From Cheiracanthium punctorium (lineage: Eukaryota; Arthropoda; Arachnida; Araneae; Cheiracanthiidae), in NCBI GenBank assembly GCA_038373885.1, contig JAWZYV010011614.1:143501-207500 (forward strand): 64,000 nt of DNA, given 5' to 3'. Below the pieces are notes generated by a model. That model was not told the DNA's origin. It saw only the letters and a list, made by a program, of their open reading frames with translations, and ran no database searches. Position numbers and translations under genes: made by a program. Shown here piece after piece: positions 7,190 to 52,440 of this stretch (position 1 is its first letter; every line of letters begins with the position of its first letter).

Positions 7190-7573
7190 GAAATATGGTG
7201 CATACTTTATTAAACCGCCCCTTCCGAAGATAAAGTCGTCTTCCCCCAGCGATCGCTGGAAAAGAAAAACCCCGAAACAACCCGAACACCTCTTGTCTCT
7301 CGCAACTCCTTCCTCCACCGCCCCCTCCCCCCAATCCCTTTAGAGCCCCCTTCCCCGCCCCCGCTTCCCACGCAGCCCCTCCGCCCCCGAACCCTTCACC
7401 AATCTAGTCCTCTCTCAGAGAACGCTGCAGAAGCTCCATTTCTCTCGGACTCTTCTCTTTCCAATTTCTCCCTCTTTCTCTCTCTCTCGCTCTCTCCCGT
7501 TTTTACAATCCGATTTTTATGGGGAAAAGTCTGAGGAAATAGAGAGAGAGAGAAATGTTGAGGAGGAAAAGGG

Positions 7574-7611
<38 letters not shown>

Positions 7612-7690
7612 AGCAAAAGCGTTGAGCCTTAAAAGTGTCAGCTATTGCACGCTACCTCATACTTTCTTTGCTTTCCTTTTTTTTTTTTTT
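7190..7690 (+). repeat. Recurrent non-coding module, copy at 7.2 kb
   Basis: The left block CATACTTTATTAAACCG (about 7201) matches TGTACTTTATTAAAGCG in the copy at 20.2 kb. The block GAAGCTCCATTTCTCTCGGA (about 7430) matches the AAAGCTC blocks near 20306 and 52109. TTTTATGGGGAAAAG (about 7515) matches the TTTTATGGAAAG block. A purine-rich stretch with a 33-base poly-A (7577-7609) follows. The core (about 7628-7680) is very degenerate. No coding potential. Confidence 0.5.
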
Positions 7691-8560
7691 CGCCTTATTT
7701 CTTAGGATGGTGTTAAGTCTTTACGGGAGTAGAGTTTTCTCCTTAAAATGAGAGAGAAAAAAAAATTTAAGAGGAAATATCCTTTCCTTTTAGCCTGAAG
7801 GTACATAGATATATCTAAAGAAAGAAAAAAAAAAATGTTGCCTACGGAACATTTTTGCCTTCAAAACTTAACTCTCTTGAAACTTGTAAAGCAAATACTG
7901 CAACGAGCAGGCTGCAAATTAATGTACACATTACTTTTTACGCACCCGAGATAAGTTTTTTAAATTATAAAATTTATACATTAGCGCTTTTTCGGCATCG
8001 CTTAAAGCTGTTCATGACTGTTATTTGCCTGTACATCTGTTTAGCGTATCTGCCTGTGCTCTAACTTTCATAAATTTTGGTGTGAACTTTGACTTTTACT
8101 GGAGTCGCTCCCAGTTATAAACAAGAAAAGTAAACCATGATCATTACCTCGAGGGTAAAACGATGCTTTCCAACGACACCTCATTTTTGCACATGCAGCT
8201 GCATCAGAGAATGATTAACCTATCCGGTCCCGATGTCGCAAACAAGAAGGATCACAAGTGCAGAAAGTCGTTCTCCCTCTGTGTCCACCCTTGTTGTATT
8301 CTCAAGTTTATAAGTCATTCTAAAGTTAGCGTCTTAAAAGTTGAAAAGTAACTAAAACAGCTCTGACGATGCCAATAATCTTCAAAGATTATAGGAATCA
8401 ATATTGGAGAGCTTGTCTGATGAGAACTGGAGAAAGTTGAATTTCAGGTCATTAAAAAGGCAGCTATTTTTTGTCACTTTGCTGACCATCGGTGTATATT
8501 TTAATTCCATTCAAGTGATTTCTTTTCGATCTGGCTATGATGGATGAAACCGATTTGACG
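7691..8560. other. AT-rich DNA, no gene seen
   Basis: Short frames at 7855-8064 and 8163-8351 have no recognisable motifs. I see nothing else. Confidence 0.5.
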
Positions 8561-8717
8561 CAGCTGGCTGTGCGCGGGCACAGCCAGCTGTCGTCAATAA
8601 AGGGTCTCTAGATCTGTGGCACGCGATGAACGTTTCGATCGTCCGCTATCTTGCTGGTACTTAAGTCGAGCTGCCCTTTTTTCAGCATTGGGAAAGGGTT
8701 GCGCCTCAAAGGGTTAA
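8561..8717. mobile_element. piggyBac-like foldback MITE, truncated copy
   Basis: Contains a short CAGCTGGCTG / CAGCCAGCTG palindrome (8561-8590) and one arm of the foldback family, ending GCGCCTCAAAGGG then TTAA at 8714-8717. The other arm and the unique tail are missing. Confidence 0.75.
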
Positions 8718-8899
8718 ATAAAATATTCTGTAACACAGAAAAACTAAGGAAAGAGATAAAGAACGTTCAAATCAAGATTTTAAAAAAAAAAAAAAAGTAT
8801 TTCACAAAAACCTACAACTAGGGTTTTTTTGAGTGGGCTTACTCTTGTTACATTCCTCTGAGAGAACGATATTTGGAAAATACATGCATGCCTACTTTC

Positions 8900-9310
8900 G
8901 CAGCAGCGAAAATAACGTATACAGAGTGTGTGTGGAGGGGAAAGCATGATGCGGGCGCTATACCACGGCCAAGTGAACTTCGTGCATCGATCTATTTGCA
9001 ACATGACGTGAACCTGTTCCACGAGATATTGGAAACGCAAGAGATGGGGTAGCAGAGGAGGGATGATGAGCCCGCCGCTGCCTCCCTTCAATACATTCTC
9101 CGCCTACGCACACGGAAACTGTCGGCGAAGTCCTACTCCGGCAAAACGTGATGTCTTGGGGGAGTGAGTGAGCGAGGGGAAGGGGGGGACGAATTTCGTG
9201 TTTGCGTTGTTTCGGTTCTTATTTTTCCGGTCGGGCGGGACGTACAAAGGGGGGAAAACTTGCGATGGGAGGATGAATTACGCGAATTTCAATGTAATCG
9301 TGATCATTTA
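8900..9310. other. GC-richer unique stretch, unassigned
   Basis: This interval is clearly richer in G and C than its surroundings, with several CpG dinucleotides and G runs. It contains TACAGAGTGTGTG near 8920, which resembles a mariner-type terminus, but I found no partner end or protein. It may be an old DNA-transposon piece or a conserved host segment. Confidence 0.3.
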
Positions 9311-11314
9311 GAAGGGGTTTTGAAAAAAAATTCCAAAAATCGGTTTATTTGTTATTTTATTTTCTTAATGTACATATGTATTTTAAGTACACACACAGAC
9401 AATTTCTATTTCTTTTCAATCCTGCGAATATGCTCATATTTGTATCGAAGTGGCAGAGCAAACGTCAAGTGATTTTGAAACTTTAAATGCATTTTTCTCA
9501 AAACTGTATTTTTAAAGTCGGTGAGCAAGATTTTTCGGAAACGGCTGAACCTATCAGTCTCAAATTTTAACACAGGCCTGTTTAAGTATATTTTTATAGT
9601 AATTAGTCGAAGTTTTTTTTTTCCTCCTCCGATAAATATTTTCCATTTTATGAACAATTTAAGTGCTAAAATCAAAAATCGACAATTTTTTCAGAAGCCA
9701 CCATTTTGTCAAAAATTATTATTTTGCTTATCCCTTCAATTATTTACAAGATAACGCATTATGCTAACGAAAAATGATCAGCTATAGCAGCGCTTTCAAA
9801 ATAAATAATTTTACAAAAAGAAGTAAAAATAAAGTTGAACGTTACTTTAATATGTGTACTAATTTTCACTTTAATAAATTACATGGTCTTCTCAAGAAAA
9901 TTTTTTGAAAAATCGCTTTTTTTGGTCCCCTGACTGTATATAACCTCCCAAAGATGCCAGAGTGATTAATCATATACCCATGGATTAATACTAAGGAAAG
10001 ATATCATCTGCGGCACTAAATATCTCAAAATGGTCCCAAAAAATCCGGCACCAGACAACTCTTATAATTAACAGGGCTGACGGAAGACCGATGTGTGTGG
10101 CTCCAGATGATCTCCGGGCAAAAGAAAATTGCACTTTCACATAGTTTTAGAAGCAGTGCTTGACCATGAACCGCCCTTGCATTCTGCGGGTTGTCTTATT
10201 CAATTTCCTGTATCGTAGCTAAATATTGGTAGTCTTCGATTGTTGAGTTAAAAATACGCATCCCCCAGACTTGATAAATTATCCCCGGCCTTCAAAAATA
10301 GCTCTCCAAAAATTAAAATTTAACCAACACATAGGTTTAAACGGCTCTTTTCTGTGAGATTTAGAACTTGGTAGTAGTTATCCCAATTTTTTTATTTTTA
10401 TTGCTATAAATTTGAGGAATCGAATATGGTACTGATGCGCTAAAAAATTCTTTGATCGTGAAACCAAGTTTGTCTTTCGAATATTTTTTTCGATCTTAGT
10501 ATTCCAAACTTAGTGAACTTTTAACTTTTATTGCTAAGAAAATATTGTTTTGAATAGCTAGGAGGGTAACTTTAGAGGACATTTATTTAAAATTTTATTT
10601 CCAATGACATCTTTGTATATACGTAATTTAAGGGCGTAGTTATTATCCATTGTAAAAACAATGTTCAAAAATGTGACCATTAGTGGGGAATCATAAAAAA
10701 ATTGTCTTCTCTTATTAACTACGCATGCAACGTTTGAATGAACTAAAAGAAATGGTACAAACTAGAAACAAACACTTGCAGGTTAAATTAAAAAGTAACA
10801 TGTTTTTGTACTCAGAACAAAAACATTGAATAGAACAAAACAATTTTCAAAAATTCAGAAAAAATATAGTTTACTAAAACAGCGTCTCTTTTTAAATTTA
10901 AGCAACTTTTACAGTTATTTTGAGGATGAAACTAATGAAAAGAATTTGGAGATGAAATCCCATTAAAAAAAACCAATGGTCAGAATGAATTTTGATGGAA
11001 ATATGTCTCATTCGTTTTTATTATCAACTAGTAGCATACCCATTCTTCGCACGAAAAGAATCAAATATTGTTTATTTATTTCTTTATTTATTTTTACTTG
11101 TTTAGACGAAATTAATTCCATCGATTAAAAAGTGCGAAATTCTTTGACTTGTCACATAAACTTAATGATTTTGAACACTATACAGATAATAACTATTTAC
11201 AGACACTAACTTGAGATGATATGTATCATAGGAATTGATGAAGTATATCGCTAGGTTACAGCAGAATAAAAAAAAAAAAAATATTAAAGTTGCAAAATGT
11301 CAAATTGAAGTCGC
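9310..11314. other. AT-rich DNA, no gene seen
   Basis: No recognisable gene, RNA or repeat. Short frames near 9406-9754 are AT-rich and unsupported. Confidence 0.55.
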
Positions 11315-11322
11315 CTCGTACT

Positions 11323-11642
11323 CAGGGGCGGATCCAGAAATTACTCAAGGAGGGGGCGATTTTGTACCTGAAACAGGGTGGTAGAATGCGCAAAATCATC
11401 TTATAATTAATTAATATAATCAATTATATCAATTAATGTAATTAATTATTTTATTGATAAAATCTATATATGAGCGATGATTAAAAAGGACAGGGAGTAG
11501 TACCCGCCATACACCCCTTAGAAAAAGGCTACATAATTTTCATTATACTTTCATAATATATTTTAACAGAATATAACAGATTTTTGGACTTCTCCCAGGA
11601 GGGGCGATTGCCCCCACCGCCCTCCCCTTGGATCCGCGCCTG
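11323..11642. mobile_element. hAT-type MITE with perfect 8-bp target duplication
   Basis: Ends are CAGGGGCGGATCCAG (from 11323) and CTTGGATCCGCGCCTG (to 11642), near-perfect inverted repeats. The 8-bp target CTCGTACT is duplicated exactly at 11315-11322 and 11643-11650. The 320-bp interior is AT-rich and non-coding. Termini and target length are standard for hAT. Confidence 0.9.
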
Positions 11643-11654
11643 CTCGTACTCTAG

Positions 11655-11750
11655 AGAGAAACTGCTTACAACAACATCCTTTTAAATACAATCGAAAGAA
11701 AATTGTATCCCAATTTTTGTGCTATTTCTTTAATTTCTTGAAATTAATTA
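11655..11750 (+). repeat. Diverged non-coding segment paired with 17025-17110
   Basis: ACAACATCCTTTTAAA and AATCGAAAGAAAA occur in the same order and spacing near 17025-17065. The hAT MITE just to the left interrupted this segment's flank. Confidence 0.45.
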
Positions 11751-12780
11751 ACATTATTAATAACCTAAAGTATTAATATTTTTCATTAATAACCCAATGT
11801 AATCATCTGTCAAATAATACAAAAATAATTCCGAAGTTCTTAAAAAATTAAATCAATATGTGCTTTTACGCTTTCGTATTCCTTTTTCATCTGGTTATAT
11901 TTTACAGTATTATCTTTTGAAATTAGCGCACTTAGACGAAATTAGCGCACGAGTGTAAGTAGATAATAAAAAGAGAAAGTAGAGTAAATAAAAAAAGAGA
12001 AAGAAAGAAATGAAAAACTTTTTATGACATAATCTACCTCTCAGTTGGTTTCTTTTTTATATGTAACGTGTGTCAACTTTTTGTTAAAAATATTTTATTT
12101 TATTTATTTATTAATATATTTATGTATTTTATTAATTATACATATATTTTATTTATTTTTGGGATAACTTTCTTCATTTTTCTATCCCATGGGAAGTAAT
12201 AGTGCGAAATAGGATTTAGCAATTTAATATTTTCGTTGAAAACAACAGGAAAAAAAAATATATAGATGACATTTAAGTATCGAAATCAGGTAGATCCGCT
12301 TAGACTTTCAACTACCTCCGTTTCCAAAAGGGAAAGGGAATATTATTTAATGAACATAATATTAGACACATTTGAAATTGTTGCTTAGGGTTAATGTAAT
12401 CTCAGTTGTGAGCAAATTTTTCTTTAAAAAATAGAAAATAATCCTCTTATAATTTATGATTTAAATTAACTGTATATTAGGACATCGCATTCAAATACCA
12501 AGTAAATGTAGTTTTAGTTTTCTTAATTCATTTGTTTCCGTTTAATTAATTCGTTTGTCAAGGGAGAAAAAATTTAAAAAATCTTTATGAAGTGGCAATT
12601 TTTTGTCACTTAAATAGTTCAGAAAGCTGTTAAAGGAAGTGGCATTTTTACTCTTCAATTTCAGAGACAAAATATCTATTTAGCATTGTAAAGGTTAGAT
12701 ATACACACTAAAAATGTCATTAGGGGGACGAAAAAGTAATTTCGTCATTTTGTAAGTCAATATTTCGCCAAGCAAAAATT
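11751..12780. other. Very AT-rich DNA, no gene seen
   Basis: Long A/T stretches. No recognisable gene or repeat boundary. Confidence 0.5.
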
Positions 12781-12783
12781 ACT

Positions 12784-13490
12784 GAACACTCTCAGAAAAA
12801 TTCGTCCCTGAATTTCCAACGAAAAATTTCCGTACTCTATAAAAACGCAAAATTTCCATGAATTCTTCTCTAAATTTGAAGAAGAGTGAAAAAAAATCGT
12901 TGAATCTGAAGAAGTTTCTTCAATTGGCAGAAGAAACAACGAAACGGATATTCGTCAAGTAACGGAGATATTTCGTCAGCACTGTTGACAGTAAAATTTC
13001 CGTGAAGTGAAGAAATAATTTTGGAGAGTGAAGCTGATACTACGAAATCGGGCATGTACACTCTCAAAAATTATTTTTTCAATTCACGGAAATTCGGCAA
13101 CAGTGCTGCCGGAATATCTCCGTTTCCTTTTTCTCCTGTCAATTGAAGAAACTTCTTGAGATTCATCGAAATTTTATTCCTCTTCTTCAGATTTTCGAGA
13201 AGAATTCACGGAAATATGACGTTTCTATTCAGTACGGAAACTATTCGTTGAAAAATGAGAGATGAATTAGCGCATAAAGACTACAATCTCGTAAATCATT
13301 TCTTCAGTTCACGGAAATGTTTCTGGCAGCAGTTCTGCCGGAATATTTCCATTATTTGACGAATATGCCTTTCGTTTTTTCTCCTGCCAATTGAAGAAAT
13401 TTCTTCAGATTCAACGATTTTTTTCCCTTTTCTTCGCACTTAGGGAACAAGAATTCAGGGAATAGTATGTTCCCATAGAGCACGGGAATT
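12784..13490. repeat. Cluster of three related foldback units in inverted/direct arrangement
   Basis: Unit 1 (about 12785-13029) runs opposite to unit 2 (about 13064-13265) and unit 3 (about 13286-13490). Units 1 and 2 have CACTCTC-type ends. All share blocks such as TTCACGGAAAT, CAATTGAAGAA and TTTCTTCAGATTC or their complements. No protein. Likely non-autonomous transposons of one unclassified family inserted in or beside each other. Confidence 0.6.
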
Positions 13491-15105
13491 TCCTAATAGC
13501 ACAACAGTCCCCTGTGACTGAAATGCGACCACACAATACTGTCACAATAGAGTTACAAACAGTCGCCGCGACTCCGCAGCAAAGTCACGCCAGAGTCGCT
13601 ATGTCCTCTCGCTGTGTATTCACATTGCGAGCGTTTAGAGAAGTCACGATGCGACAGCGAAAAAATTCGGGGAAAAAGAGTTACCAAAAATATACACCAG
13701 ATGGCAGCACAGAATCGAACCCTCGAGCCAATGGTTAGTAGGCCAGCATCTTACCGCAACGCTGTAATTACCTTGCTCGGTATCCTTTAAAAGTAAACTG
13801 ACTGCTGCAAAAGCTAGTTCTGACGGATTCTTTTGGAAATTTAAAATTTTTTGTGACTATTTTATAAATAAATTTTATGTATAAATATATATATCTTTAT
13901 TTTATAAATAAATTTTATATTCTGTGAGTATTTTATAAATAATATAAAAATATCATAATTAATAAATATAAATTAAAAATCTTGGAAATCTTTCTTTTTC
14001 CACATAAATTATTTTCAGGAGATAATGTGCTGTTTTATTTAAGTATTCATCCGAAAAAACTAATGATTTATTGAAATTTTTTATTCGGTTATGAAATAAA
14101 TTTGTAATGTGCGACATGTGGGGTTTGATATATATTAAGGTATGAGGGATAAGATTTATATTTTTGCTATATTTTGCGTAAAAGGGATTTCATATAAAAA
14201 TAAATAAAATTAATTGGAAAAACATGCATTAGATAAAATAAATAAAGTATTTTTGACTTAGACCCATAGTTTTACCTCAAATTTTTCGTAGTGGAACATT
14301 CAAACATACCAGAGACGTAATTAAAGGGGGGGGTCTGAAAACTTAAAGCAATTATTAAAAAACAGCAATTTTGAGTCATTTTATCTACTCTAGTAACAAT
14401 AAGGTTGAAAATACCGGATAGTCCCCTCCCCCCCAATCCGAAATTTAAACCTACATACGCTATCGAAACATATATGCCATGGGGATATGAAAGAAATTGT
14501 TAATTTTACTCACAGATACTTAGTTTTCACCATTGTGATTAGCACTCTCAACTCTAATATTTTTAAGAATAATATTTTTTTTTATAAATAATATTGCCTT
14601 TTTTAAACGAAATAATTTTAAAATTAATAAAGTAAACTAAATTCCATTACTACATAACTGCGAGATTTTATTGAATTACTATTTTCGGATTTATTTATTA
14701 AATGTTTCACGAAAGAAATTGCCACAAAATATTAGAAAAAATGAGTCTATTTCCAAAGTCGCAAAAGCGGCTAGTGTGACGTCGTTTTGAAGTCCAAAAA
14801 AATCAGTAGTCACAAAATAGACACACAGTGACTTCACAGTAGAGTCACTGAGCGACCAATCACATACTAATCACATGGTAACTTCACAGTGGAGTCACTG
14901 AGCGACCGATCACATACTTGTCACATGGTGACTTCACGGCGACGTCACCTGGTGACTGGTCACAAGTAAACTTCACAGTGGCTACACAGTAGAGTCACAT
15001 CACTCACAAGTCACAATGTGAGTAGTATGTGACAGTCCTGTGACAATTGTGACCCTCTGTGACGTCACAGCGACTCTTTTGTGACCATCTGTGCTATTAG
15101 GGTTA
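13491..15105. mobile_element. Inverted-repeat element with GTCAC-amplified ends
   Basis: CCTAATAGCACA at 13491 and TGTGCTATTAGG near 15094-15105 are inverted. For 200-300 bp inside each end the sequence is crowded with GTCAC/GTGAC, TCACAGT and CACTGAG motifs in both orientations (for example 14820-15080). The middle is very AT-rich. The AGCACA inner part of the terminus is shared with the 4903-5758 element. No transposase is recognisable, and a 74-codon frame at 13514 is a by-product of the repeats. Confidence 0.6.
13700..13775 (-). repeat. tRNA-like segment (SINE head or tRNA relic)
   Basis: On the minus strand GGTAAGATGCTGGCC followed by GAGGGTTCGATTCTG resembles tRNA boxes A and B. No complete cloverleaf is claimed. 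It lies inside the 13491-15105 element. Confidence 0.45.
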
Positions 15106-15140
15106 TCTGTAAACCGGCAAACCCAACAGTTTATTGCAAA

Positions 15141-15428
15141 GAAGTATAGTTAGAATAAGCCTGACGAAGATTGTAGAACAGTTTTAGTAGGCAAATTTAA
15201 TATAGATCTCAGTTCAGAAAAGGGTTTTATGAAACAAGAAATACAAACACAGCACGTTCATAGCACGTGCACGTTTGGGAATGTGCACGTTATAGTGCAC
15301 ATTCCAAACAATAAAGGTGAAGTATAGTTAGAATATGCCTGACCAAGGTTGTAAAACAGTTTTAGGAGGTGAATTTAATATAGATTTCAGTTCCAAAGAA
15401 GACTTTTATGGAACAAAAAAGAAAAATA
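15141..15428 (+). repeat. Direct duplication, about 100 bp repeated at 178-bp period
   Basis: 15141-15245 and 15319-15428 share GAAGTATAGTTAGAATA, CAGTTTTAG and AATTTAATATAGAT. The spacer contains several GCACGT/GTGCAC palindromic motifs. No known family. Confidence 0.7.
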
Positions 15429-15570
15429 CCTCACACTCATGAATAAAGATACACTTTCCAACTTAATGAAATGAGGAAGAAAATAACTCATGGATTATGA
15501 TATGCTTTTGATATATAGCACTTAAGTGCATATTTAAACTATAAAAAGTATTTCAGTTTTTTATATATAT

Positions 15571-16592
15571 ACAGGATGGTTATAATTAAAGTTTCACTTT
15601 GAAACGGTCAGAAAAGGTACTGGACCAAATGTTATCAAACTTGGTAATCGTGTAAAGCAGGTCATGGGAATTTATTATCTGCGGAAAAAAAAAGTACAAA
15701 AACTCACCATCAGGGGGAAAATGATAGTATATGCAATATTGGTAAGTGAAATAAGACCATGAAGACATCGGTTTAAAATGTTTGTAATCGTTACTAAAAC
15801 GAAACTGGGTGTGGGGTTATCTTGAAAGCACTGTCTATAGTATAATAATCTAAACAATTTGAAAGTTGCGATACACTGACCTGTCCGTAACATTCCTCCT
15901 GATATGCTAAGAGCTGCTGTTGAGAATGCTGTGATATGATTCAAATTGCTTTCGGACAATGGTGGACGCCACCTGGGCCTGAAAAATCTATTATCCGGCA
16001 TGCCCGGGGCATGTAAAACATTCAGCAGGGCGTGTACTTTTTTTGACATGCCTGATGGGGCATGTAAAAAAAAATCTACTGTAAGAGATTCGATCATTGG
16101 CAATCTTCAGGAAAAGATTTCAGACATATAAATAGCCGCCGTGCTGTTCATGTATCTTAGGTGTCCGTACTGATTTGGTTTGTGGTTGCAACATTTCCTT
16201 TCAATGCAATCAGTCTGAATAATGTAAATTTTACAGAGCAGTAAAATGTAGTAATATTTTTCGGGCATGTATTCTTTAAGGTTACAGGCCTGACTGGGCA
16301 TGCACATTTTCTGAGATTTTTCTGCCCCTGGACACCACACTGAACATGCTTATGCTTTGTAACACGTTACAAAAACGATTACGAACACTTTAAACCAGTG
16401 TCTTCATGTCTTATTTCGTTTACCTATATTATATACTTTTCCCTCTGGTGGTGAAGTTTTGAACTTTTTTCTTCCTCGGGTAATAAATTCCCATGACCAC
16501 CTTTACACGATTACCAAGTCTGCTAACATTTCGTTCAGTAGTTTTTATTTTCTGCTCATTTTTAAAAGGAACTTTAGTGATAACCACCTTGT
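15571..16592. mobile_element. DNA element with long terminal inverted repeats (about 230 bp)
   Basis: The left arm begins ACAGGATGGTTAT at 15571. The right arm ends ATAACCACCTTGT at 16592, complementary over about 230 bp with substitutions. Long shared blocks include CTTGGTAATCGTGTAAAG and CATGGGAATTTATTA. A core of about 560 bp holds recurrent GGGCATG motifs, including CATGCCCGGGGCATG near 16000. A 142-codon minus-strand frame (15675-16103) lies mostly in the left arm and lacks any known motif. The family is shared with 53473-57433, probably Tc1/mariner-like. Confidence 0.75.
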
Positions 16593-17273: not shown

Positions 17274-17277
<4 letters not shown>

Positions 17278-20179: not shown

Positions 20180-20640
20180 GCTTGTACTTTATTAAAGCGA
20201 TTCCCTGAGGTAAAGCTGTCTTTTTAGCATGTGGCGAAAAGAATATTAAAAAAAAGTAAAGAGCTCAGAGGAAAAAAAAAAAAATGTTCGTTCTCTTTCG
20301 AACAGAAAAGCTCATTTTTTCAGTCACCTTCGACACCCCTCCTCTTTTCTCCCCGATTCTTTTTTTCAAATCGAATTCTTTTTGCTGGATTTTATGGAAA
20401 GGAGCGAGACACCAAGAGAAAGAAAGAAAAAAAAAAATGGCGCAGCGGCAGCAGTGTAAGAAACAAAATGAGAAGAGAGAGTCAGAACTTTTTAATTGCC
20501 GGCGTTCGCGCGTCATATCGTTAAATGGGAAAATGAAGCCTGCAGTTTTTTTTTCTTTCTCTCTTTTTTGAGATTATTTTTCTATTTATTTTTTTATTTT
20601 CCCGTACAAAATTTTGTTCTGTCTGACAGGTTGCTATGGC
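20180..20640 (+). repeat. Recurrent non-coding module, best forward copy
   Basis: Ordered blocks are TGTACTTTATTAAAGCG (about 20187), AAAGCTCATTTTTTCAGTC (about 20306), TTTTATGGAAAGGAGCGAGA (about 20392), then a purine-rich tract. The core at 20489-20538 has TTTTTAATTGCC, CGCGCGTCATATCGTTAAA and GAAAATGAAG. A pyrimidine-rich tract follows (20547-20615). The same order is seen at 32.5 kb on the other strand, and parts of it at 7.2, 25.8, 48.4, 49.9 and 52.1 kb. Frames of 95-97 codons across it are low-complexity and differ between copies, so I do not call a protein. Confidence 0.7.
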
Positions 20641-23107: not shown

Positions 23108-23640
23108 GGCCTAGTAGCTAAGCTCCGTTCCAGTAAGAACACGGAAAGTTAAGCAGCGCTGGCTTGGCCAGTGGTTGGGAGTGTGAATACCTCTCTCGGC
23201 TGGGTTGTTGTGGAACCGTGTACGCTAATGGGAGCGGGTGCACGTAAAATCTGTTACTGGATCCGATGTCTTCCATGTTCAAATAATACCTCTGGGGGTG
23301 TCGATTTCAGGTGCTAGCTTTCTCATCTGGCACTGGTTCAAAATTAGGAGACCACTGATAGCCGCCCATTGGTTGCCCCCATAATGAAATAGCTAATTTT
23401 TCGGGCCTTAGCAGTGGCGGATTAATGCAAGTTTGAAGGGGGGGGGTGGCTTGTTCGTTGAGGGGGGGGGGTTAGTTAGAAGATTGACATCCATTTTTTG
23501 GAAGTAAAATAGGATCTTTTACATTAATTTCTTTTTTTTTGGGGGGGGGGTCACCCCCTCCGCCCCCCCCCTTTAATCCGCCCTTGGGCCTTAGTAATGG
23601 CAAAGGCTTGTGGCAGCGAGTACCCACCACTAGAAAAAAA
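23108..23640 (+). mobile_element. 5S-rRNA-headed SINE with 15-bp target duplication and nested MITE
   Basis: AAAGTTAAGCAGCGCTGG, then TGGCCAGTGGTTGGGAG and GTGAATACC (about 23147-23190) align with the internal promoter region of 5S rRNA (box A, intermediate element, box C). A SINE body follows, with a tail ending in a short A run. AGATTTAACCAAAGT (23093-23107) and AGATTTAATCAAAGT (23641-23655) form a 14/15 target duplication, showing retroposition. A 175-bp hAT MITE interrupts it. A true 5S gene is excluded because 5S similarity covers only the central region and no 5S-like 3' end follows. Confidence 0.8.
23412..23586. mobile_element. hAT-type MITE nested in the 5S SINE
   Basis: Ends are CAGTGGCGGATTAATGC and TTTAATCCGCCCTTG. 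The exact 8-bp duplication GGCCTTAG occurs at 23404-23411 and 23587-23594. The interior is G-run rich and non-coding. Confidence 0.9.
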
Positions 23641-25789: not shown

Positions 25790-26200
25790 GAGCAGAAGGA
25801 AAAAAAAGTTCTCTTTTTTTTCAGCGAATTTCGATGACGAGGAGAAAAGGAGAAGGGTAAAAAAAAGTTTTGCAAAGAACAATAAGCCTTATTTCTCCTC
25901 CAAAATTCTTCAACCCTTTTTCATGCACGAGGGAAAAAAAAACCGAAAAGACATTTTTTATGGAAAAAAAAAACACTGAAGAACGTTGCACTGAAATAAA
26001 GAAGGGAGAAGGAAAAACAAAGGGAAGAGAGATTTATAATGGAAAAAAAAAAAACAACAGAAAAAGAAAGTGACAAAACTAAAATTCTCTGAGCCGAAAT
26101 TTTTAATTGCCGGTAATCACACGCTGTACTGCTAAACAGCGAAATGCGCTTTTTCTCAATTTTTTCTTTTCAAGGCCTTTTTCTTTTTCTTAATTTTTTT
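25790..26200 (+). repeat. Recurrent non-coding module, copy at 25.8 kb
   Basis: AAAGTTCTCTTTTTTTTCAG (about 25806), TTTTTTATGGAAA (about 25953) and a long purine-rich tract are followed by the core at 26100-26150 (TTTTTAATTGCCGG, then CACACGCTGTACTGCTAAAC, then GCGAAATGCG) and a pyrimidine-rich flank. Confidence 0.6.
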
Positions 26201-32430: not shown

Positions 32431-32960
32431 CACTAACGACTCTGGCCGTTATTAAGAGGGCGTACGGGAAGGGGGGGGCTCATCGAGGGGTGGTGGGAGG
32501 AAGTAGGTGATAGCGAGGAGATCCCAAGACCTCATTTTCGCGTTTAACGACATGACGCGCGATCACTGGCAATTAAAAACTTGAGCGCCTCGTGTGACTC
32601 TCATAATTCATATTCTTCGTTTTTTTTTTCCTCCCCCGTTTTCCTTCCATCCTTATATTTTCTGCGCTGGCTTCTTCTTTTTATTTTATATTTTTTTTAA
32701 TTTTTGCTCCCGTTCATAAAAGATACGGTGAAAGTAATTCGATTAAGAACAGAAAAGTGGGAGGTGTTTCCGAGAAAAACGAGTTTTACCTCTCTCTCTC
32801 TTCTCTTGCTCTCTCTCTCTCTGTGTTGTGTGAGAGGAGGAGAGTTGAGATGTTTTCTCTTTTTTTTTTTTTTCGCGATTACATCACGTGAAACGCGGAT
32901 AGCGTTCGGCCGAATCCTTAGAATTCATGAGTGGTTTAATGAAGTGCGTGTCGTTTCCCG
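32340..32960 (-). repeat. Recurrent non-coding module, inverted copy
   Basis: The core is on the minus strand at 32531-32580: TTTTTAATTGCC, CGCGCGTCATGTCGTTAAAC, GCGAAAATGAG. Upstream on that strand are a purine tract, TCTTTTATGAACGGGAGC (about 32720), AAAACTCGTTTTTCTCGGA (about 32780) and CACTTCATTAAACCAC (about 32940), the same order as the forward copy at 20.2 kb. This copy keeps many CpG and is GC-rich. (CT)n at about 32390-32431 lies on its pyrimidine side. Low-complexity frames (for example 32704-33036) are not genes. Confidence 0.7.
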
Positions 32961-43815: not shown

Positions 43816-44019
43816 GTCTTTTCGTAGTCGTTGGCATGTTTTAAAAATCAAGAAGTGCCCTACTCTTGTAGCAATGGTACAAATTTTGAAGGGAATCATC
43901 TTATAATGCGCAATAAGGTCTTATGAGTTAAGCTGTCCATTTTATGGTAAATAAACGAAATTATTCATCCGCAATGTGATTGGATTTAACTCTTATTCGA
44001 GAATCCTTTATTTAGAATA

Positions 44020-44560
44020 GTGTTTCAAAATCAATTTTTTTAGTATTTGCGTACACTGAAAGCACACAAATTTGAGAATATAATTACTAGTCTTCTGCAA
44101 CCTTTAATTTACCTCCCGGTTATTTTCAACTCAAATCTCCCTTCAAATCTTGCTGGCGCAAAATTCCTTAAACGTTTAGAAAGAACCCGAATTCTAAGCG
44201 GAGATTAAACAGCGATATTTCTTTCAAAACGTTCTATTTACAAAAGCTGTTCCTTCAGACAAGCACAACGCGATATTGATTCAACGCACTAAGTCAACAA
44301 CACTCTGCATCACTCTGTCGGAGAGTTCAGCTGGAGCTAAAGCACACAGACTCGCAGCAGCGGGGGCTGCTTTGAATTGCAAAAATGCCCCGCGCTTTTC
44401 TTTGCCACCGAATTCCCAATTAGTGTCTGTGCGGCTCGTTTACTAAAATCCAGGAAAATTTCATCAGCAAGAAGCTCTTTCGGCTTTCTGGAAATTTCCT
44501 CAGAATTCGAAGTAATTATATTCTGCGCGAGTTTTGGGGGGTGGGGAGGGGGTTGGCAGC
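44020..44560 (+). repeat. Diverged tandem non-coding duplicate, first copy
   Basis: Matches 45420-45930 at about 1.39 kb offset. Best block is TTTGAATTGCAAAAATGCC, then GCACTTTC/GCGCTTTTC, TTGCCACCGA and TTCCCAATTAG (about 44370-44425 and 45770-45825). Reading frames do not stay aligned between copies. Confidence 0.65.
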
Positions 44561-45419
44561 GAAGAAAATTAAGTGGATCGTTGCTGCGTATAACGTTGGG
44601 GCTTTAAAGCGAACGCGACTTTATTTCACGTGCGTTATGCACTTACGGGGGAATCTTTTTGTGCTTGATCGGGGCATAAGTTGTTTTGAATTAACAGATG
44701 GGGAACACTGTGATGTGCTTTTAATACGATTAGACAAGAGTTATTCAAAGCGTAGAGGAGTCGTGGGAGATGTCTCTGAGAACTGCAATTCTGCCATCAG
44801 TTCAATGTTACGAATGACTAACTCTAGTTCAGGGTAAAATGTACGTCGGGGGATATATATTTCATCTTTGGATCTCGCTGCAACCTAGTATTTCCATGTC
44901 GAGAACTTTTCTGGTTCTCACCATCGTACGAAACATGTGAATTTCTGGAAAAGATGAACTTAACTGCCGCTTAAATACTGGCGATGACTGTCAAACATGC
45001 CAGAACTCTTACGAGAATATTTGGTGTTTATGGTAATGGGACTCTATTTTGTTAGTTAACTCTCTAGTCAGTGAGGAAACGAGATTGAAGCTGGTGAGAG
45101 TATAACTCTCTTCAAAAAGAGTCTAGAAGAAGAAATACAATCTTAAAAGACCCAATCGGAAAAAGATGTAATGTCTCTTGTGCTGAGTCATGGGATATAC
45201 AACTCTGCCATCAGTTCAATTGTTACAACTGACTTTTGGGTGAATACGTCATGGCACTACGAATTTGAATTTCCCTCTTTAGAAGAAAGGAAAGTATTTC
45301 CATTTTTAGTTGACAATAACTAGAATAATTCGTGAAAAGCTGAATTATCAATATCAAGCTGAAGTTATCCAACACACTGATTTTGCAAAACTATATAAGT
45401 AATTTATAGCCAGAAGTCG

Positions 45420-45930
45420 CATATTTAAGAACATGTTTCAAAACCAGTCTGTCAGGCTTGATTCGTTTTTAGTTAGTATAAACATCGAATTTACTTGTTC
45501 AACATTGAAATAAAAATTATTATTCATTCAAAATTTTCCTCACAGCGCTTTTAAAAAACGATTTAAAAAAGCCCTAATTCTATGCAGAGAACGAACAGCG
45601 ACTTTTCTTCCAAAACCTTTTACATACAGAAGCAGTTCTTTAGATAGCACAAAGAGATATTGATTCAGAGCACCAAGTCAACAAACTCTGAACACGCCCT
45701 GAGTTCAGGTGAAGTTGAGCACCCATAATACTTGCGGCAGCCAGGTCATGACTTTCGGCAGCGACTTGCTTTGAATTGCAAAAATGCCTCGCACTTTCAT
45801 TGCCACCGACTTCCCAATTAGCGCCTAAGCAGCTCCTTTACGTATTCGAGGAGAATCTCGCCGGCAAGAATCATCCTCTTTCTGTCTCCGGAAACGACAG
45901 CAGATTAAAGTTTACAATCCTGCGTGAGTT
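45420..45930 (+). repeat. Diverged tandem non-coding duplicate, second copy
   Basis: Partner of 44020-44560. Shared order: AACAGCGA, CAAGCACA/TAGCACA, GATATTGATTCA, CAAGTCAACAA, TTTGAATTGCAAAAATGCC, GAGTTTTGGG. No protein conserved. Confidence 0.65.
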
Positions 45931-46189
45931 TTGGGTCAAATTTAACAGCTTGGAACCGTATGCCATTGATGTATACATGAAATTCTATACATGAGCAGCA
46001 GTAATAGTACTAGTGTGGGCTTTACACTAAATTCACTATTATGGGTTTATATTTATTACATCATTAAGAAAAAACTTCAATAAACAGAACTTCAAATAAC
46101 AGAAAAGGGCAATAAAGCACGATAATCAGTTGATCACATTGATTAAGAAATTACTTTTCAACACGACCTTATTTGATTTTCATCACCGC

Positions 46190-46265
46190 TTAATGTCCAA
46201 GTGGATAAGGCACTGAGTATTTGGATCTGGCTAAAGTGTGCTGTTCCAGGTATCTGGCCAGTCTG
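46190..46265 (+). repeat. tRNA-like relic
   Basis: GTCCAAGTGGATAAGGCAC resembles box A, and CTGTTCCAGGTATCTGG resembles box B at normal spacing. No good acceptor stem, so not a functional tRNA. Confidence 0.35.
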
Positions 46266-46357
46266 TTTTATTTTCTCATCTCTAAACCACAAGGAAGCCA
46301 ATTTATAAGTATAATAACTTTCTGCATTTTTCTCTGTGGATCAAGGCACCATATTTT

Positions 46358-46550
46358 TAGTGACGGATCCTGGGGTAGGGCTAGAGGATTTCATTCCCCT
46401 CCCCTCCCCTCAAAAGAAAAAAAAAGGATAAGACATTGCTTTAGGATACTATTTTGCTTTAGAGTAAATTTTGTTCAGTTCAAATGAGCTTTTAAAAAAA
46501 AAAAAAAAAAACTTAGCCCTTTCCTACTAAAAATTCTGTATCCACCAGTG
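46358..46550. mobile_element. hAT-type MITE
   Basis: TAGTGACGGATCCTGG and, inverted, CACTGGTGGATACAGA. Targets CATATTTT (46350-46357) and CATACTTT (46551-46558) match 7/8. Shares its right half with 6600-6790. Confidence 0.8.
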
Positions 46551-46558
46551 CATACTTT

Positions 46559-47620
46559 ACTGTCTCGAAAAAAAAAGAAAAGCAATATGGACATGTGGTC
46601 GACTTCAGTATTTTAGGCAAAGGCAGTAGCAGGATATTCTTCCCTACTTACGTTACGTTAGTGGTGGAATTTCGCCAGTCGCCATTTCCAGTAGTTTTTG
46701 GAGAAATTCGTCAGGTCTAAAGGAAGTAATTTTCCGTTCGTACGATCGTTTGTTTTAAATCCGATAGTTACCTGCTTTTTTTTTTCTTGATTAACAAACA
46801 TGTGTGTGCGTTAGTGTGTGTTTTTTTCTTTTTCTTCTACTTTTTCTTAAGACAGATTGATTTCCCGTTAAGTACGCAAAGAATATGTCTTAAAATTACA
46901 AAGACATAATGAAAATAATAAAAATGTAAATACCGGAGAAATATAAAATGCGTAGGGGAAAACAGACTTTTTATAATAATAAGACAACTTTTCGAAAATT
47001 ACTATAATTAAAGGGCAAAGGTTGTGAAATATACCTTCGATAATCATTTCCCTTTAGTGTTCCAACGCACCAATGTGCTTTACCAATTTGAACTGGTACT
47101 ACTTTTTTTTTTATCCCTTCCACTTAAACGAGTCGTAATCCGCGACTCCCGGAAGCAACAATAGATACAGTAACGGAATCGCTGCCGTCAAGCCTTTGCA
47201 CGACGAGAGTGAACAGTTTAACGTTAACACAAATAAGATGCTAATGTGATCTTTTATCACTGCCGCTATGAGAATTGCATTCCAATTTTCGATGCATTGA
47301 AGAAAGCCGCACCATGCTAAAACAGTATCGCGGCAAATTCTCAGTATAACAAACCTCAAGAGATAGATGATCAAATTCGTAGTTCGGAGAAGTTCTTTAG
47401 AGTAAAATTTCCTTATAGCAGGAGCTGTGCTTATGATTTTATTTTAAGAGGAAAAGTTTATTCGTTAACCTGGACTATATTTGTAAAAGTGGTGTTCTCG
47501 TCGTTACGGTATTTTAACTGCAAACGTATAGCAAATATTGGTTATTTAGTTAATGCAGTGAAAAATGTTGAGAAATAATAATTAAAAAAAATTTAGTTAT
47601 AATTTCAGAGTGAGGTACAC
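46559..47620. other. No gene seen
   Basis: AT-rich DNA. An 87-codon minus frame (47111-47374) lacks known motifs. Confidence 0.45.
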
Positions 47621-47904
47621 TTAACCCATTTGTGCCTGGATATTTTTGCGACTTTCTTCGATTTTTACTGATAACAGAAATAATAGATAAATTTCTGATG
47701 TCAACTTCTTGAACAAGGGATGGTTTCTTTTAAAATAATTATACATAAAAATCGAAATATCAACATACTACTTGGTCATGTTAAAATATTTTGTAGAGTT
47801 GAGGCTCAATACTCATGAATAAAGGCTAGGAAAAATAAATAACGTTTTCGACTAATAGCGGAAATGCCGTCCCAAAAAAGGGACACTAGGCATAAATGGG
47901 TTAA
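47621..47904. mobile_element. Second TTAA-flanked MITE family
   Basis: TTAA at 47621-47624 and 47901-47904. Inverted ends CCCATTTGTGCCTGG and CCCATTTATGCCTAG. The 284-bp non-coding element has a different interior from the foldback family but similar ends (CCC, TTAA). Confidence 0.85.
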
Positions 47905-48369
47905 CCGAAGAACAGTCGGCTTTAAGACATGAGTGAAATATTTTATTAAAAAGTATTTTTGTATAGAATAAATTAACAAAGAATGTTTTAGAATTTAAAT
48001 ATGGATTTGGGAGGTCCCTTTCAACCGCGGGGGTCTGAATCCTACGCAAAGTCCGAGTTTGCCCATGCGATTCTATGACTCTAGCGAAAGGGGTTGTTAA
48101 GGCAGTCCTGAAGGACAGTTGGACAGTTATGTGCGGTTATTTCTGGGATGTGTATGGCTGACTGTCTATAAGACAGAAATAATTCATACAAAACCATTCA
48201 TATCTTTTTTTATTTTATTTTTTAAGAACTGGAACTTCTTACCGCAGCATGGCGACGAAAAAAAAAAAGTGATTATTATTCTTTTCAGTTTCAGTAATGA
48301 GAAAAAGCTGCCTTTTAACCCATTCTTTTTTTATTCCGAGAGTTAAAAAGAGAAAAAAAAATGGTGTTT

Positions 48370-48960
48370 TTTTTTTAGACGTATGTCAGAGAACGACATA
48401 AAAACAAAAAACGAGCCCGGCGATTCGGAGCTTTCAACGGGAAACCAATCTATCTGGGATTCCGTTCAGCATAATTCTTAAATTGATTTTTTCTCCGTTC
48501 TTTATCATAAATGAAAGAAAGCGAAGGAAGGAGCTAATATGGAAGAGCAGAAGCAAAAACTGAGATCTTGCATGTATAATTTTTAACTCCGAATTTCTCA
48601 GTCTCTAATCGTATTAAACTGTGAAAGAAAGAGGAGGTTTTTTTTTTCTCTTCTCTCTCGTGACTTTCTTATGTGTGATATTATTTCTGCTGAGAATTTT
48701 AGATAGCGCAGACTTAAAAAAAAAAAAAAAAACTGAATAAATGAAATTATATTTTAGCGCTTTCAGAGATTTCCACTTCGGGTCGGATGTGATTTTTTTA
48801 TGAATTATTTTTAGTCGAGGTTGAACTGCTAAGAATATGGTACCGATTTTTACATTCCTTATATCAGATAGGTTATAGTTTTAGTTCTATAATGAAATTA
48901 TGTAATACCGACCTTTGGTAGAACAGTACATGCTAAGCATGTTTAATAGGAAGAAAGAAA
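48370..48960 (+). repeat. Recurrent non-coding module, tandem copy 1
   Basis: Matches 49900-50440 at an offset of about 1.5 kb: TTCTTAAATTGATTTT, CTCCGTTCTTTATCAT, GGAGCTAATATGGAAGAGCAG, core TAATTTTTAACTCC with TAATCGTATTAAACTGTGA (48579-48632), TAGATAGCGCAGACTT. Relative to the 20.2-kb copy the TTGCCGG part of the core is lost. Confidence 0.6.
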
Positions 48961-49064
48961 ATTGTTAATTGCTTTTTTCACCGGAGTAGAAAATTGTGGT
49001 CAAAACTTGCTGCATTTTTGAGAATGTAATAAAATTAATTTTTGATTCGAAATATGCATTCAGT

Positions 49065-49238
49065 CATTGGCGGATTCAGACGAGGAGAACGTCCCCTCTC
49101 CTTCCCACGCACAAATTAATTTACACAATAGAAGATTGACTTATTTTCTGAATTCATATGAATTTATAAGAAAAAGGACAGAAAATATATGTTGTGCCCC
49201 TTCCGCCTCCAGAATTTTTTTTTCTGGATCCAACACTG
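49065..49238. mobile_element. hAT-type MITE with perfect 8-bp target duplication
   Basis: CATTGGCGGATTCAG and CTGGATCCAACACTG ends. CATTCAGT is duplicated at 49057-49064 and 49239-49246. It lies between the two tandem module copies. Confidence 0.85.
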
Positions 49239-49899
49239 CATTCAGTTTCTCGAAAACTCGATTGGCCGCAAACTGTATTGTTCGCCTATCTTTGGTTTAT
49301 CTGATTTTGAAAATATTTAGGATCCAAAATAAATGATAATACAAAATGAAAATTCTCGAGACAAGTTCATTAAGGCTTTTTGTTTTAGAAATCAAGCAAA
49401 TTTCGAAATTTTTTTATTAAAAATTAAATTATATCAGACACTTGAAAAAGTTTTGAATGTTTCTTCACAATCTGTACTATTCACTCTTACAAACAGTTGC
49501 CTTATAAAAGTTTCGAATCATTAGAAAAAAAGTTTTCATGCGATGTTTGATATTTTACTAAATATATCACTCATTTGCCAAATTTGAAAAACGATTATTT
49601 TGCCTTATTTTTTTTCAGCAAATCGCGTAGATTTAAAAGAGTGCATAGTGCAGTTTATATGGAAAAAGATATTTCACAAAATCTGCTGCAATTTGTTTTG
49701 AAACTATTCAAGGGTCATATAGACTAAAATTTTATTTACTTTTCTTTTTTTTTCTAGAGAACAACGTTAAGGTGCCTTACTGCAATATGAAGAGGCAAAA
49801 TACCATAAAAACATGATTTTATTCAGCGAAAGAAAAATGGTTATATTTTTAATTTATTAACGCTGAATGTCTTAAAGCTTTGTTTTAGAAGTATGAAAA

Positions 49900-50440
49900 G
49901 ACGACTCAAAAAGAAAACCAAGCAGTGGCTCTGTGCTCCGAGCGAGAAGCCATTTTTGCAGGTTTCCGTTCTGCGTCATTCTTAAATTGATTTTACTCCG
50001 TTCTTATTATCATGGAAAGAAGCGAGAAAAAGAGCTAAAATAGAAGAACAGAAAAAAAATTAAGATCAGCATGCATAATTTTTAACTTTATCTACAGTTT
50101 AATCGTATTAAATTGTGAGAGAAAGGGATTTTTTTTATTTCATTCCATTCTTTTTTCTCTACGTGTCGTGCGATTTTTCTCAAAAATGTAGATAGCGCTG
50201 ACTTGATGCATTAATAAAATTATATTTGGATGCTGAATCTGTCAGGTGTTTCAATTTTGGAACAAAAAAATATGATTTTTTTTTTTAAATTATGCATAGT
50301 CGAATCTGGACTGTTGAAAATATTACCATTGATTTTTAAATTGTGTAAGATCGGATAGGTTTAATTTTATTAGTTCTTTCATGAAATGAGATTATACAGT
50401 TGGTAAAGCAACACATTCCTGTTGAATGGAGTAAGCCTTT
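49900..50440 (+). repeat. Recurrent non-coding module, tandem copy 2
   Basis: Core TAATTTTTAACTTT with TTTAATCGTATTAAATTGTG at 50079-50125. Homology to 48370-48960 continues to both sides, including TAGATAGCGCTGACTT and the GATCGGATAGGTTTAATTTT stretch. Non-coding. Confidence 0.6.
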
Positions 50441-50566
50441 TATAGAGAGATCTAAAAAATCTTCCAGAACTATAGCATTCTAAGTTACACCAGGTAATTG
50501 GATAGTCATTGCTAAAACTTTCGGAGGTATTCATCACTTGCAAACAAAACTCTAATCAATATACAG

Positions 50567-50715
50567 AGTGTCCCAAAAAGATGATAGCAAGCTTAAATTC
50601 TTTATCTATTAGAGATAAGTGGACAGTTTCAGTCGGAAAAAGGCTCAGAAAAGTTACACTTTTTTAAATTTGTATACGATCCCCGCACAAAAACTCCCAG
50701 TTAGTAAAATGTGCC
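50567..50715 (+). mobile_element. mariner-type terminus, truncated
   Basis: TACAGAGTGTCCCAAAAAG is typical of mariner-like terminal repeats and resembles the ACACTCTGTA end at 59984-59994. No partner end was found; it runs into the integrase fragment. Confidence 0.4.
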
Positions 50716-50719
50716 CCAT

Positions 50720-51130
50720 ACACTAAAGATGTGATATACAAATGGAGAAAGCATAGCAGGATCCCGGTCACAAGTAATAATGCTTTATACCGTGTTGCTC
50801 GAGGAAAAGCAAGAAAACCACTGATTCAGAAACGGCTGCAAGATGTAGATGCGTACACTCAGCACAAACCGGCACGCAAGAAGTTCCCCACAAACCGTGT
50901 GGTTGTATACTCAAAGGATCATCAGTGACAGGCGGATCTCGTAGATCTCTCTAACATAAAACAGTACAACAATGGGTACCGGTACATCCTCTCTTCTGCA
51001 GATATCTTATCTGAGCACGCGTTGGCAGTCTTGTCTTAAAACGGAATGTGCCGGAGATATTGTAAAAACGTTTGAATCTATATTTTTAGAAGGATATCAG
51101 CCTATTTCGCAATCGCTCGACAGTGAAAAT
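50720..51130 (+). pseudogene. Integrase-core fragment (Maverick/Ginger-like), broken
   Basis: The frame from 50731 ends KFPTNRVVVYSKDHQ at a TGA where relatives have Trp. In the same frame it continues QADLVDLSNIKQYNNGYRY then ILSSADILSEHAL, the start of a retroviral-type DDE integrase core (first Asp in ADLVDL). A frameshift near 51030 moves the rest (LKTECAGDIVKTFESIF). This pattern is known from integrases of Maverick/Polinton and related transposons. Only a fragment remains; no partner genes or ends were seen. Confidence 0.6.
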
Positions 51131-51423
51131 TTTCACCGTCTTTTCAACCACTTGATAAGGGCACTTAGAAAAAAAAATTTAAGGATGATTCCAATATGTT
51201 GAACTCTGTAAAATAAAAAATAATTAGAAAATGGAATCCTTTCCACAGCACGCTAGGTTCTATGAATGAAACCAGGACGTAGATTCCTTGACTGCATTAT
51301 CTTATTTTTTTTAGGGGGAATGAGATTCGCCAATAGCCCTATTATACCCCCTGCGCTGGAATATTTAAATTTAAATCGTAGTAATCTATTTTAAAGTGCT
51401 AATTAAATAATGACTATGTGCCA

Positions 51424-51720
51424 AGGGAGAGTCAACTCCCTCTCGGCTCGACTGCTGTGGGACCGTGTACGCTAATGGGAGATGGTGCACGTAAAGACTG
51501 TGGCGGCTCCAATGTCCTCCAAGTTGTTAAACGATACCTCTGGGGTTGCAGATTTCAGGGGATTGGTCCCTCCTCTGGAATTGGTTCAAAATGAGGGGAC
51601 CATGGGGTAAAGTTGGCATTTCCTCCCACTGGGGTCTTAAAAAGGGAAGGCACCTCTGTCCATCGCCTCCCTACCTGGGGGGGGGATATGGCACCTCATG
51701 CGGCAGTCAGGGGGCATAAG
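51424..51720 (+). mobile_element. 5S-family SINE, 5' truncated
   Basis: CTCTCGGCTCGACTG, then GACCGTGTACGCTAATGGGA, GGTGCACGTAAA, CCTCTGGGG and GGTTCAAAATGAGGGGACCA match the body of the 23.1-kb SINE. The 5S box A part is missing. The 3' part differs and ends in AACAACAACATAAT. Confidence 0.7.
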
Positions 51721-52079
51721 TAACAACAACATAATATCTGTTAATACTGCTGATGCTGTTAATGTGTTTGTGACTCGAATAACATACGATTCATATAACA
51801 CGTAACGTATCTACCGTGTTTAGGGGGGGTCTAATGTGAAAGATATTATTGAAAATGTAGGGAGCTTAAATAGACGTTTCCAATCCAGCATAATATGCAT
51901 GTGTCAGAAAGTGCATCAAATGTCTTGAAATTGCAAATATGCTTTGTCAAGCCCCTTTTTTTTCATTAAACAAGAAATGATAATAAATAAAAATAAAGGA
52001 ACGGAAAGTTTAAGACTTTTGTTTGCTCGTGAGCTATAGAGAAAAAGAAAGAAAAATCTTTTCTTACAATCTTTTTTTT

Positions 52080-52440
52080 TTTTTTTTCCCTTTTCTGTGG
52101 AGCTGAAAAGCTCCCATTTCTCCGGACGTCTTCCAGCTTCGCTCATTCCTTCTCTTCATTTTTTTTTCATATATTCTTTTCCTCGCTTTTCCCATTCCTA
52201 TATATATATATATATATTTCTCTCTTTTGAGATTTTCTTTTGCGCTGATCTCTTTTGTCCGTCTCTTCGAAAAAGAGTACGCTGGAGAGAAAAAAAGAGG
52301 GTAGGGTTGTAAAAATAAATAAAAGAAAATATACAGAAATGTAGAAAAGAACGAAGTTCGCCACTGAACTTTTTAATTGCTGACGATTCCGCGTCATCTC
52401 GTTAAACGAGAAATGAAAAGGCTCCGATCCCCTTTATATA
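52080..52440 (+). repeat. Recurrent non-coding module, copy at 52.1 kb
   Basis: AAAAGCTCCCATTTCTCCGG (about 52106), a pyrimidine-rich stretch, a purine-rich stretch, then the core at 52370-52420: TTTTTAATTGCTGACGATTC, CGCGTCATCTCGTTAAACG, GAAATGAAAAGG. A (TA)n/(GATA)n tract follows at about 52434-52465. Confidence 0.65.

What the first reader, a model, noticed from the sequence alone, without database searches (positions are those of the whole stretch)
7190..52440. A non-coding module of ordered blocks recurs up to nine times on both strands
Seen directly: copies near 1, 7190, 17270, 20180, 25790, 32340 (minus), 48370, 49900 and 52080 share some or all of: a CTTTATTAAA block, an AAAGCTC block, a TTTTATGGAAAG block, a purine-rich tract, a core beginning TTTTTAATTGC and running to CGTCAT and TCGTTAAAC, then a pyrimidine-rich tract. 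Copies differ in many bases, keep block order, and have no visible transposon ends, polyA tail or reading frame. Inference: an ancient duplicated regulatory or ncRNA unit, or a very old repeat family. The purine left and pyrimidine right flanks could pair into a long hairpin with the core in the loop.
Basis: partly seen in the sequence, partly recalled or inferred. Interest (0 to 1): 0.8.

Follow-up and report, generated by a model that had tools for sequence, protein, structure and literature searches.

The report
Local array of spider noncoding cores
In a spider genome, a short non-coding DNA element of about 45 bases recurs at least seven or eight times in one gene-poor 65 kb stretch and its consensus was found nowhere else in that assembly, which makes it a candidate array of duplicated gene switches whose target is unknown.

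Summary
The repeat is real but narrower than described. Its solid part is a core of about 45 bp (TTTTTAATTGC...RYGTCATnTCGTTAAAC). Five of the nine claimed copies carry it (window 20, 20486, 26097, 32582 minus, 52367); three more lie left of the window (-2662, -5292, weaker -11875). In leave-one-out tests 7 of 8 cores beat every position in 257 kb of control sequence. Copies at 48.4 and 49.9 kb are a 68%-identical pair with a degenerate core; 7.2 kb is weak; 17.3 kb is unsupported. As module-wide motifs the upstream and downstream blocks equal chance (11 of 25 null sets as good); one downstream box, GTCGTTAGCCGAAAA, is supported in two to four copies. Pattern searches of the 2.53 Gb assembly put every 0- and 1-mismatch hit on this contig: a local array, not a dispersed transposon. 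No host gene, shared reading frame, Rfam family at threshold, or evolved hairpin was found. The host is a spider (20 spidroin domains). Best reading: paralogous cis-regulatory modules from old local duplication, the core kept while flanks decayed. Target and activity are unknown; promoters of unseen transcripts are the main rival.

The parts
20..59 (+). core copy m0 (subgroup II; first ~34 bp conserved)
   Evidence: leave-one-out 25.8 vs control max 14.7; sister of the copy at -2662 (94% over 33 bp)
311..325 (+). downstream box E (GTCGTTAGCCGATAA), about 290 bp after the start of core m0
   Evidence: any-offset p = 0.004 against m52, one of 28 pairs
7205..7214 (+). CTTTATTAAA block of the weak copy m7
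   Evidence: exact match; longer match to the 20 kb copy; leave-one-out p = 0.003
7625..7664 (+). weak core-like stretch of m7
   Evidence: leave-one-out p = 0.007, PWM 11.8; not decisive
20187..20196 (+). CTTTATTAAA block of m20
   Evidence: leave-one-out p = 0.002; block not significant as a set
20307..20313 (+). AAAGCTC block of m20
   Evidence: shared with 52107; not significant as a set
20390..20401 (+). TTTTATGGAAAG block of m20
   Evidence: overlapping ATGGAAAGGAGCGAGA shared with m50 at a similar offset; not significant as a set
20486..20537 (+). core copy m20 (subgroup I)
   Evidence: leave-one-out 49.3 vs control max 16.9
26097..26143 (+). core copy m26 (diverged right half)
   Evidence: leave-one-out 22.5 vs control max 15.8
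32532..32582 (-). core copy m32r (subgroup I, the only inverted core)
   Evidence: leave-one-out 45.3 vs control max 16.9
32433..32454 (-). downstream box E of m32r (TAATAACGGCCAGAGTCGTTAG)
   Evidence: collinear with m52, p = 0.0013, one of 28 pairs
48457..48898 (+). duplicate unit m48 with degenerate core
   Evidence: 68% identity over 462 bp with m50, E = 2e-33
49961..50387 (+). duplicate unit m50 with degenerate core
   Evidence: shares ATGGAAAGrAGCGAGA with m20
52107..52113 (+). AAAGCTC block of m52
52367..52417 (+). core copy m52 (subgroup I)
   Evidence: leave-one-out 37.7 vs control max 16.0
52489..52517 (+). downstream box E of m52 (TAGTAATGGTCAAAGTCGTTAGCCGAAAA)

Best explanation
A local array of paralogous cis-regulatory modules in a gene-poor stretch of a spider chromosome. 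Seven clear copies and one weaker copy of a 45-bp core lie within about 64 kb (contig C6567, roughly 131.6-195.9 kb). They arose by old duplication within the locus, as the 48/50 kb pair still shows. Since then sequence around the core has drifted to background, while the core and, in some copies, a downstream box (GTCGTTAGCCGAAAA, which resembles the right half of the core) were kept. The likely mechanism is binding of sequence-specific factors to double-stranded DNA: a TAATTG homeodomain-type site, a CGTCAT CRE-type half site and a TCGTTA...CGAAAA box (motif names recalled, not tested), several equivalent modules acting together on a gene outside the stretch read. Shown: the copies, their boundaries, no near-exact copy elsewhere in the assembly, no shared frame or fold found. 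Inferred: purifying constraint, factor binding, enhancer-type role, the target.
For: Sharp boundaries: subgroup I ungapped pairwise identity 0.91/0.73/0.82 in the three 15-bp core bins, 0.18-0.51 in all other bins from -120 to +180. Near-exact consensus only here: left pattern, 5 zero-mismatch hits all on C6567 and no 1-mismatch hit; right pattern, 3 zero-mismatch hits and the single 1-mismatch hit all on C6567. A second box downstream, collinear in m32r and m52 with unalignable sequence between (p = 0.0013, one of 28 pairs, about 0.04 after correction), and found again in m0 (p = 0.004) and weakly in -5292 (p = 0.012). Closest relatives are neighbours for -2662/20 and 48/50, as in duplication within a locus. 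No frame open in all copies, no core structure. Both orientations occur. Pfam on 142 of the 158 window ORFs of 66 aa or more: two transposase helix-turn-helix families and three weak single matches (E 0.0045-0.0063).
Against: No expression, chromatin or cross-species data: constraint is inferred from paralogues only, and copying or conversion of the core alone could mimic it. Upstream and downstream regions are not above chance as module-wide motifs (11 of 25 null sets as good each), and 9 non-core collinear matches lie within the null range of 2-12. Only 6 of 66 module pairs exceed z = 3 in gapped alignment, one of them m48/m50. No target gene seen in the 334 kb of 398 kb read. No CpG mark. 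Repeat cover only slightly lower than around it (21% vs 28%). tblastn found one weak m20/m26 match across the purine tract and core (E = 2.5e-6 without composition correction, two stops inside), which I take as low complexity plus the DNA core.
Confidence: 0.5

Rival explanations
1. The modules are promoters or first exons of a tandem family of transcripts (lncRNAs, alternative 5' exons of one large gene, or small genes whose exons were not recognised). The core would be a promoter element and transcription would run rightward in all copies but one.
For: Seven of the eight core copies point the same way; box E lies downstream at +98 to +290 in the same orientation, so the unit is directional. 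Exons shorter than the ORF cut-offs would have been missed.
Against: Nothing beyond box E recurs downstream as a module-wide motif (11 of 25 null sets as good); among the 60-odd best cross-module peptide matches printed, those I read were repeats matching in several frames or the low-complexity m20/m26 match. One copy is inverted.
Confidence: 0.25
2. The array is an architectural element: clustered insulator, tethering or silencer sites binding a chromatin protein, flanked by GA-rich tracts.
For: Repeated near-identical sites in a gene-poor stretch with purine-rich left flanks (55-82% purine); no transcript or frame needed.
Against: No known architectural motif was tested (no motif library on hand); the resemblance is recalled. 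It overlaps with the best explanation and could not be separated from it here.
Confidence: 0.12
3. A short mobile or converting element of about 45 bp spread locally without function; the flanks were never shared.
For: The core ends abruptly, and m0/-2662 share about 33 bp and then diverge.
Against: No near-exact copy elsewhere in 2.53 Gb; box E is shared beyond the core in several copies; m48/m50 show long local duplication. No terminal repeats or target-site duplications seen by eye.
Confidence: 0.1

Closest known systems
Duplicated conserved non-coding elements (dCNEs) of vertebrates (McEwen et al. 2006: seen only as an entry in the reference list of PMC5728398; content recalled)
   Same: Short non-coding stretches whose paralogues stay recognisable while flanks do not; clusters in gene-poor stretches (passage of PMC5728398).
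   Different: dCNEs are found beside paralogous genes (recalled). Here the copies sit together in one locus and no gene copies were seen; cross-species conservation is untested.
Tandem alternative promoters with a shared sequence element, such as clustered protocadherins (recalled)
   Same: Several diverged modules in a row, mostly one orientation, each with a short shared core.
   Different: There each promoter precedes a coding exon; no exon or frame follows the cores here.
Redundant (shadow) enhancers within one regulatory landscape (recalled)
   Same: Several equivalent modules for one gene would give this anatomy.
   Different: Shadow enhancers usually share factors, not an alignable core; eight alignable copies would be unusual (recalled).

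Membership tests
Dispersed transposable element | many copies across the genome | tested here: not met
   all 0- and 1-mismatch hits of two core patterns in 2.53 Gb lie on contig C6567
Dispersed transposable element | defined ends (terminal repeats, target-site duplication, poly-A tail) | tested here: inconclusive
   none seen by eye; no dedicated test
Structured non-coding RNA gene | conserved or covarying secondary structure | tested here: not met
   no consensus pairs in the 63-column alignment of 8; flank folds no better than shuffled flanks. Longer-range structure was not tested by covariation
Known RNA family | Rfam match at gathering threshold | tested here: not met
   0 in the window; 8 sub-threshold matches at E <= 1, two of them overlapping modules
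Protein-coding gene family | reading frame shared by the copies | tested here: not met
   no frame open through all eight copies; Pfam on 142 of 158 window ORFs finds transposase domains and three weak single matches; short exons not excluded
Conserved cis-regulatory module (paralogous CNE) | short conserved island within unconserved flanks among copies | tested here: met
   0.73-0.91 inside the core, 0.18-0.51 outside (subgroup I)
Conserved cis-regulatory module (paralogous CNE) | conservation across species | not testable with these tools
   no relatives of this genome are held (note)
Conserved cis-regulatory module (paralogous CNE) | open chromatin or reporter activity | not testable with these tools
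   no functional data on hand
Conserved cis-regulatory module (paralogous CNE) | linkage to a developmental regulator | tested here: inconclusive
   none of the 139 homeodomain matches listed is on C6567 (150 of 230 candidates scored); other families not searched; 64 kb of the contig not read

The most novel reading that the evidence does not exclude
A spider-specific bank of eight or more interchangeable regulatory cores at one locus, from which individual cells or body regions use different members, a combinatorial or choice-type switch built by duplicating the non-coding module without duplicating the gene.
Probability: 0.07. Interest if true: 0.8.

Novelty: new variant of a known kind. Interest (0 to 1): 0.42.

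Why it matters
Paralogous non-coding elements are usually studied beside duplicated genes. A row of copies in one gene-poor stretch, with only a short core surviving, would be a natural experiment on which bases of a regulatory module selection keeps and on how regulatory landscapes grow by local duplication. The core gives a specific probe for other spiders. Four literature searches (listings) showed no title or abstract start describing such an array in a spider; the papers themselves were not read beyond passages of two.

Tried and rejected
Hairpin between purine and pyrimidine flanks: rejected, 20 folds, mean z -0.11. Core as the C-terminal end of a peptide (FLIA...R-stop in one frame): rejected, since upstream frames are not kept, another frame aligns as well, and the TTT TTA ATT codons are identical in six copies without synonymous change (the last point is read from the alignment). 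Hox or other homeobox cluster: no listed homeodomain match on this contig. CpG islands: contig-wide CpG o/e is 0.97, modules not distinct. Histone 3' stem-loop in the AAAGCTC block of the 52 kb copy: below gathering score, stem not kept in the other copies I read. Dispersed repeat: rejected. A possible relative at C6179:391849 (profile score 24.2) was dismissed because about 12 such scores are expected by chance in 5 Gb of positions (iid background); only 4 of the 10 two-mismatch places were looked at, and the other three of those four scored 10.9-14.4. Viral contigs: no exact match to the core pattern.

Caveats on my own controls: one search prints '2000 random windows' but the script used 600, drawn from the whole contig including the modules, so its p-values have a floor near 0.003; its block training sets were chosen by eye. 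One search gave the modules 400 seeds and the controls 150; one search repeats it with 400 each, and the non-core results became weaker. One search used a core pattern shifted by one base and is discarded; one search is the corrected search.

Full report
What the window is. It lies at 143,501-207,500 of a 398,305-bp contig (C6567) of a 2.53 Gb assembly with 15,171 contigs. Twenty matches to the spidroin N-terminal domain, all over the family's cut-off, mark the genome as a spider's. Of the contig I read 334 kb (13,501-277,500; 1-10,000; 277,501-337,500), including a 5-kb run of N right after the window.

The core. A profile of five window copies scores 40.5-63.9 at window 20, 20486, 26097, 32582 (minus) and 52367, and finds two further copies upstream at -2662 and -5292 and a weaker one at -11875; ten shuffles peak at 20.2 (in that first scan -11875 scored 17.0 and -2662, in its 51-bp form, 8.0, so these two rest on the later tests). 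With a 40-bp profile and leave-one-out scoring, 7 of 8 copies exceed every position on both strands of 257 kb of control sequence from the same contig; -11875 scores 13.5 against a control maximum of 14.2. Motif discovery with equal effort gives 238.8 for the modules against 164.7 +- 9.3 (maximum 190.4) in 25 control sets.

Where it occurs. In the whole assembly the left-half pattern has five zero-mismatch hits, all on this contig, no one-mismatch hit, and seven two-mismatch hits elsewhere, five of them one dispersed repeat; 305 hits in all at up to three mismatches against 203 for the reversed control. The right-half pattern has three zero-mismatch hits and one one-mismatch hit, all on this contig, and three two-mismatch hits elsewhere; 141 in all against 664 for the reversed control. 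Only the first 100 places are listed, but they are ordered by mismatches, so the low-mismatch lists are complete. One outside place, C6179:391849, scores 24.2 with the 48-column profile, comparable to the weaker array members; about 12 such scores are expected by chance in 5 Gb of positions under an iid background, against 0.001 in the control-sized stretch. The strong members score far above that.

The nine claimed copies. Five hold. 48.4 and 49.9 kb are a duplicate pair (462 bp, 68%) whose core is degenerate. 7.2 kb is weak. 17.3 kb is not supported.

The extra blocks. CTTTATTAAA is at 7205 and 20187, AAAGCTC at 20307 and 52107, TTTTATGGAAAG at 20390, with a one-mismatch form at 25956; each also occurs elsewhere in the window. 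As module-wide motifs the upstream and downstream regions are not above chance: 11 of 25 control sets score as high in each. Twenty-four near-collinear ungapped matches between modules compare with 2-12 in eight null sets, but 8 are the core and 7 come from the 48/50 pair; the remaining nine are within the null range. One block stands out: GTCGTTAGCCGAAAA. Its two best matches in 264 kb, at 0 and 1 mismatch, both lie 100-300 bp downstream of a core in the same orientation, and of five other matches at 3 mismatches one is downstream of the -5292 core. m32r and m52 share a longer form of it at nearly the same distance (p = 0.0013, one of 28 pairs). It resembles the right half of the core (read by eye).

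Flanks. Ungapped identity between the three best copies is 0.91, 0.73 and 0.82 in the core bins and 0.18-0.51 outside. In m0 and -2662 the conserved part is shorter, about 33 bp.

What it is not. No reading frame is open through all eight copies. tblastn between modules showed repeats and one weak low-complexity match between the 20 and 26 kb modules with two stops inside (only the best 60-odd matches were printed). Pfam on 142 of 158 window ORFs gives two transposase families and three weak single matches. ORF listings over the rest of the 334 kb showed transposon proteins and no exon that I recognised as a host gene (read by eye, no domain search outside the window). The window has no Rfam match at threshold and no tRNA. 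The purine/pyrimidine hairpin is no stabler than shuffled flanks.

How it most likely works. The anatomy, short constrained DNA sites in both orientations with unconstrained spacing and no shared frame or fold, is that of factor-binding modules. I commit to duplicated cis-regulatory modules at 0.5, with promoters of unseen transcripts next at 0.25. The target gene, the factors and the timing are unknown; none of the 139 listed homeodomain matches is on this contig.

Noticed in passing
window 52074-52119 (minus): Inverted repeat GGAGCT-GAAA-AGCTCC in the AAAGCTC block; sub-threshold match to the histone 3' stem-loop (26.4 bits, gathering 34, E = 0.0033).
   Followed up: partly
window 3138, 8575, 33124, 40423, 41110, 61950: Members of a palindromic short repeat family that is frequent across the contig.
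   Followed up: no
window 44170-44538 and 45556-45935; 23177-23354 and 51425-51602: Two further diverged duplicate pairs, 70% and 78% identical, near the array. The second also matches elsewhere on the contig, so it may be a repeat.
   Followed up: no
contig 97,164-98,204 and 220,044-221,084: Two nearly identical 347-codon Tc1/mariner-like transposase frames in opposite orientation either side of the array.
   Followed up: no
contig about 122,400-127,500: LTR (gypsy-type) retrotransposon with an open frame of 1126 codons and repetitive gag-like frames beside it.
   Followed up: no
contig 207,501-212,500: 5-kb run of N directly after the window; gap or withheld stretch.
   Followed up: no
contigs C5618 and C3877 of the same assembly: Eight and four homeodomain matches in rows, as expected of the two Hox clusters of spiders (identity of the genes not checked).
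   Followed up: no
window 14810-15009: Four tandem copies of a 50-bp unit.
   Followed up: no
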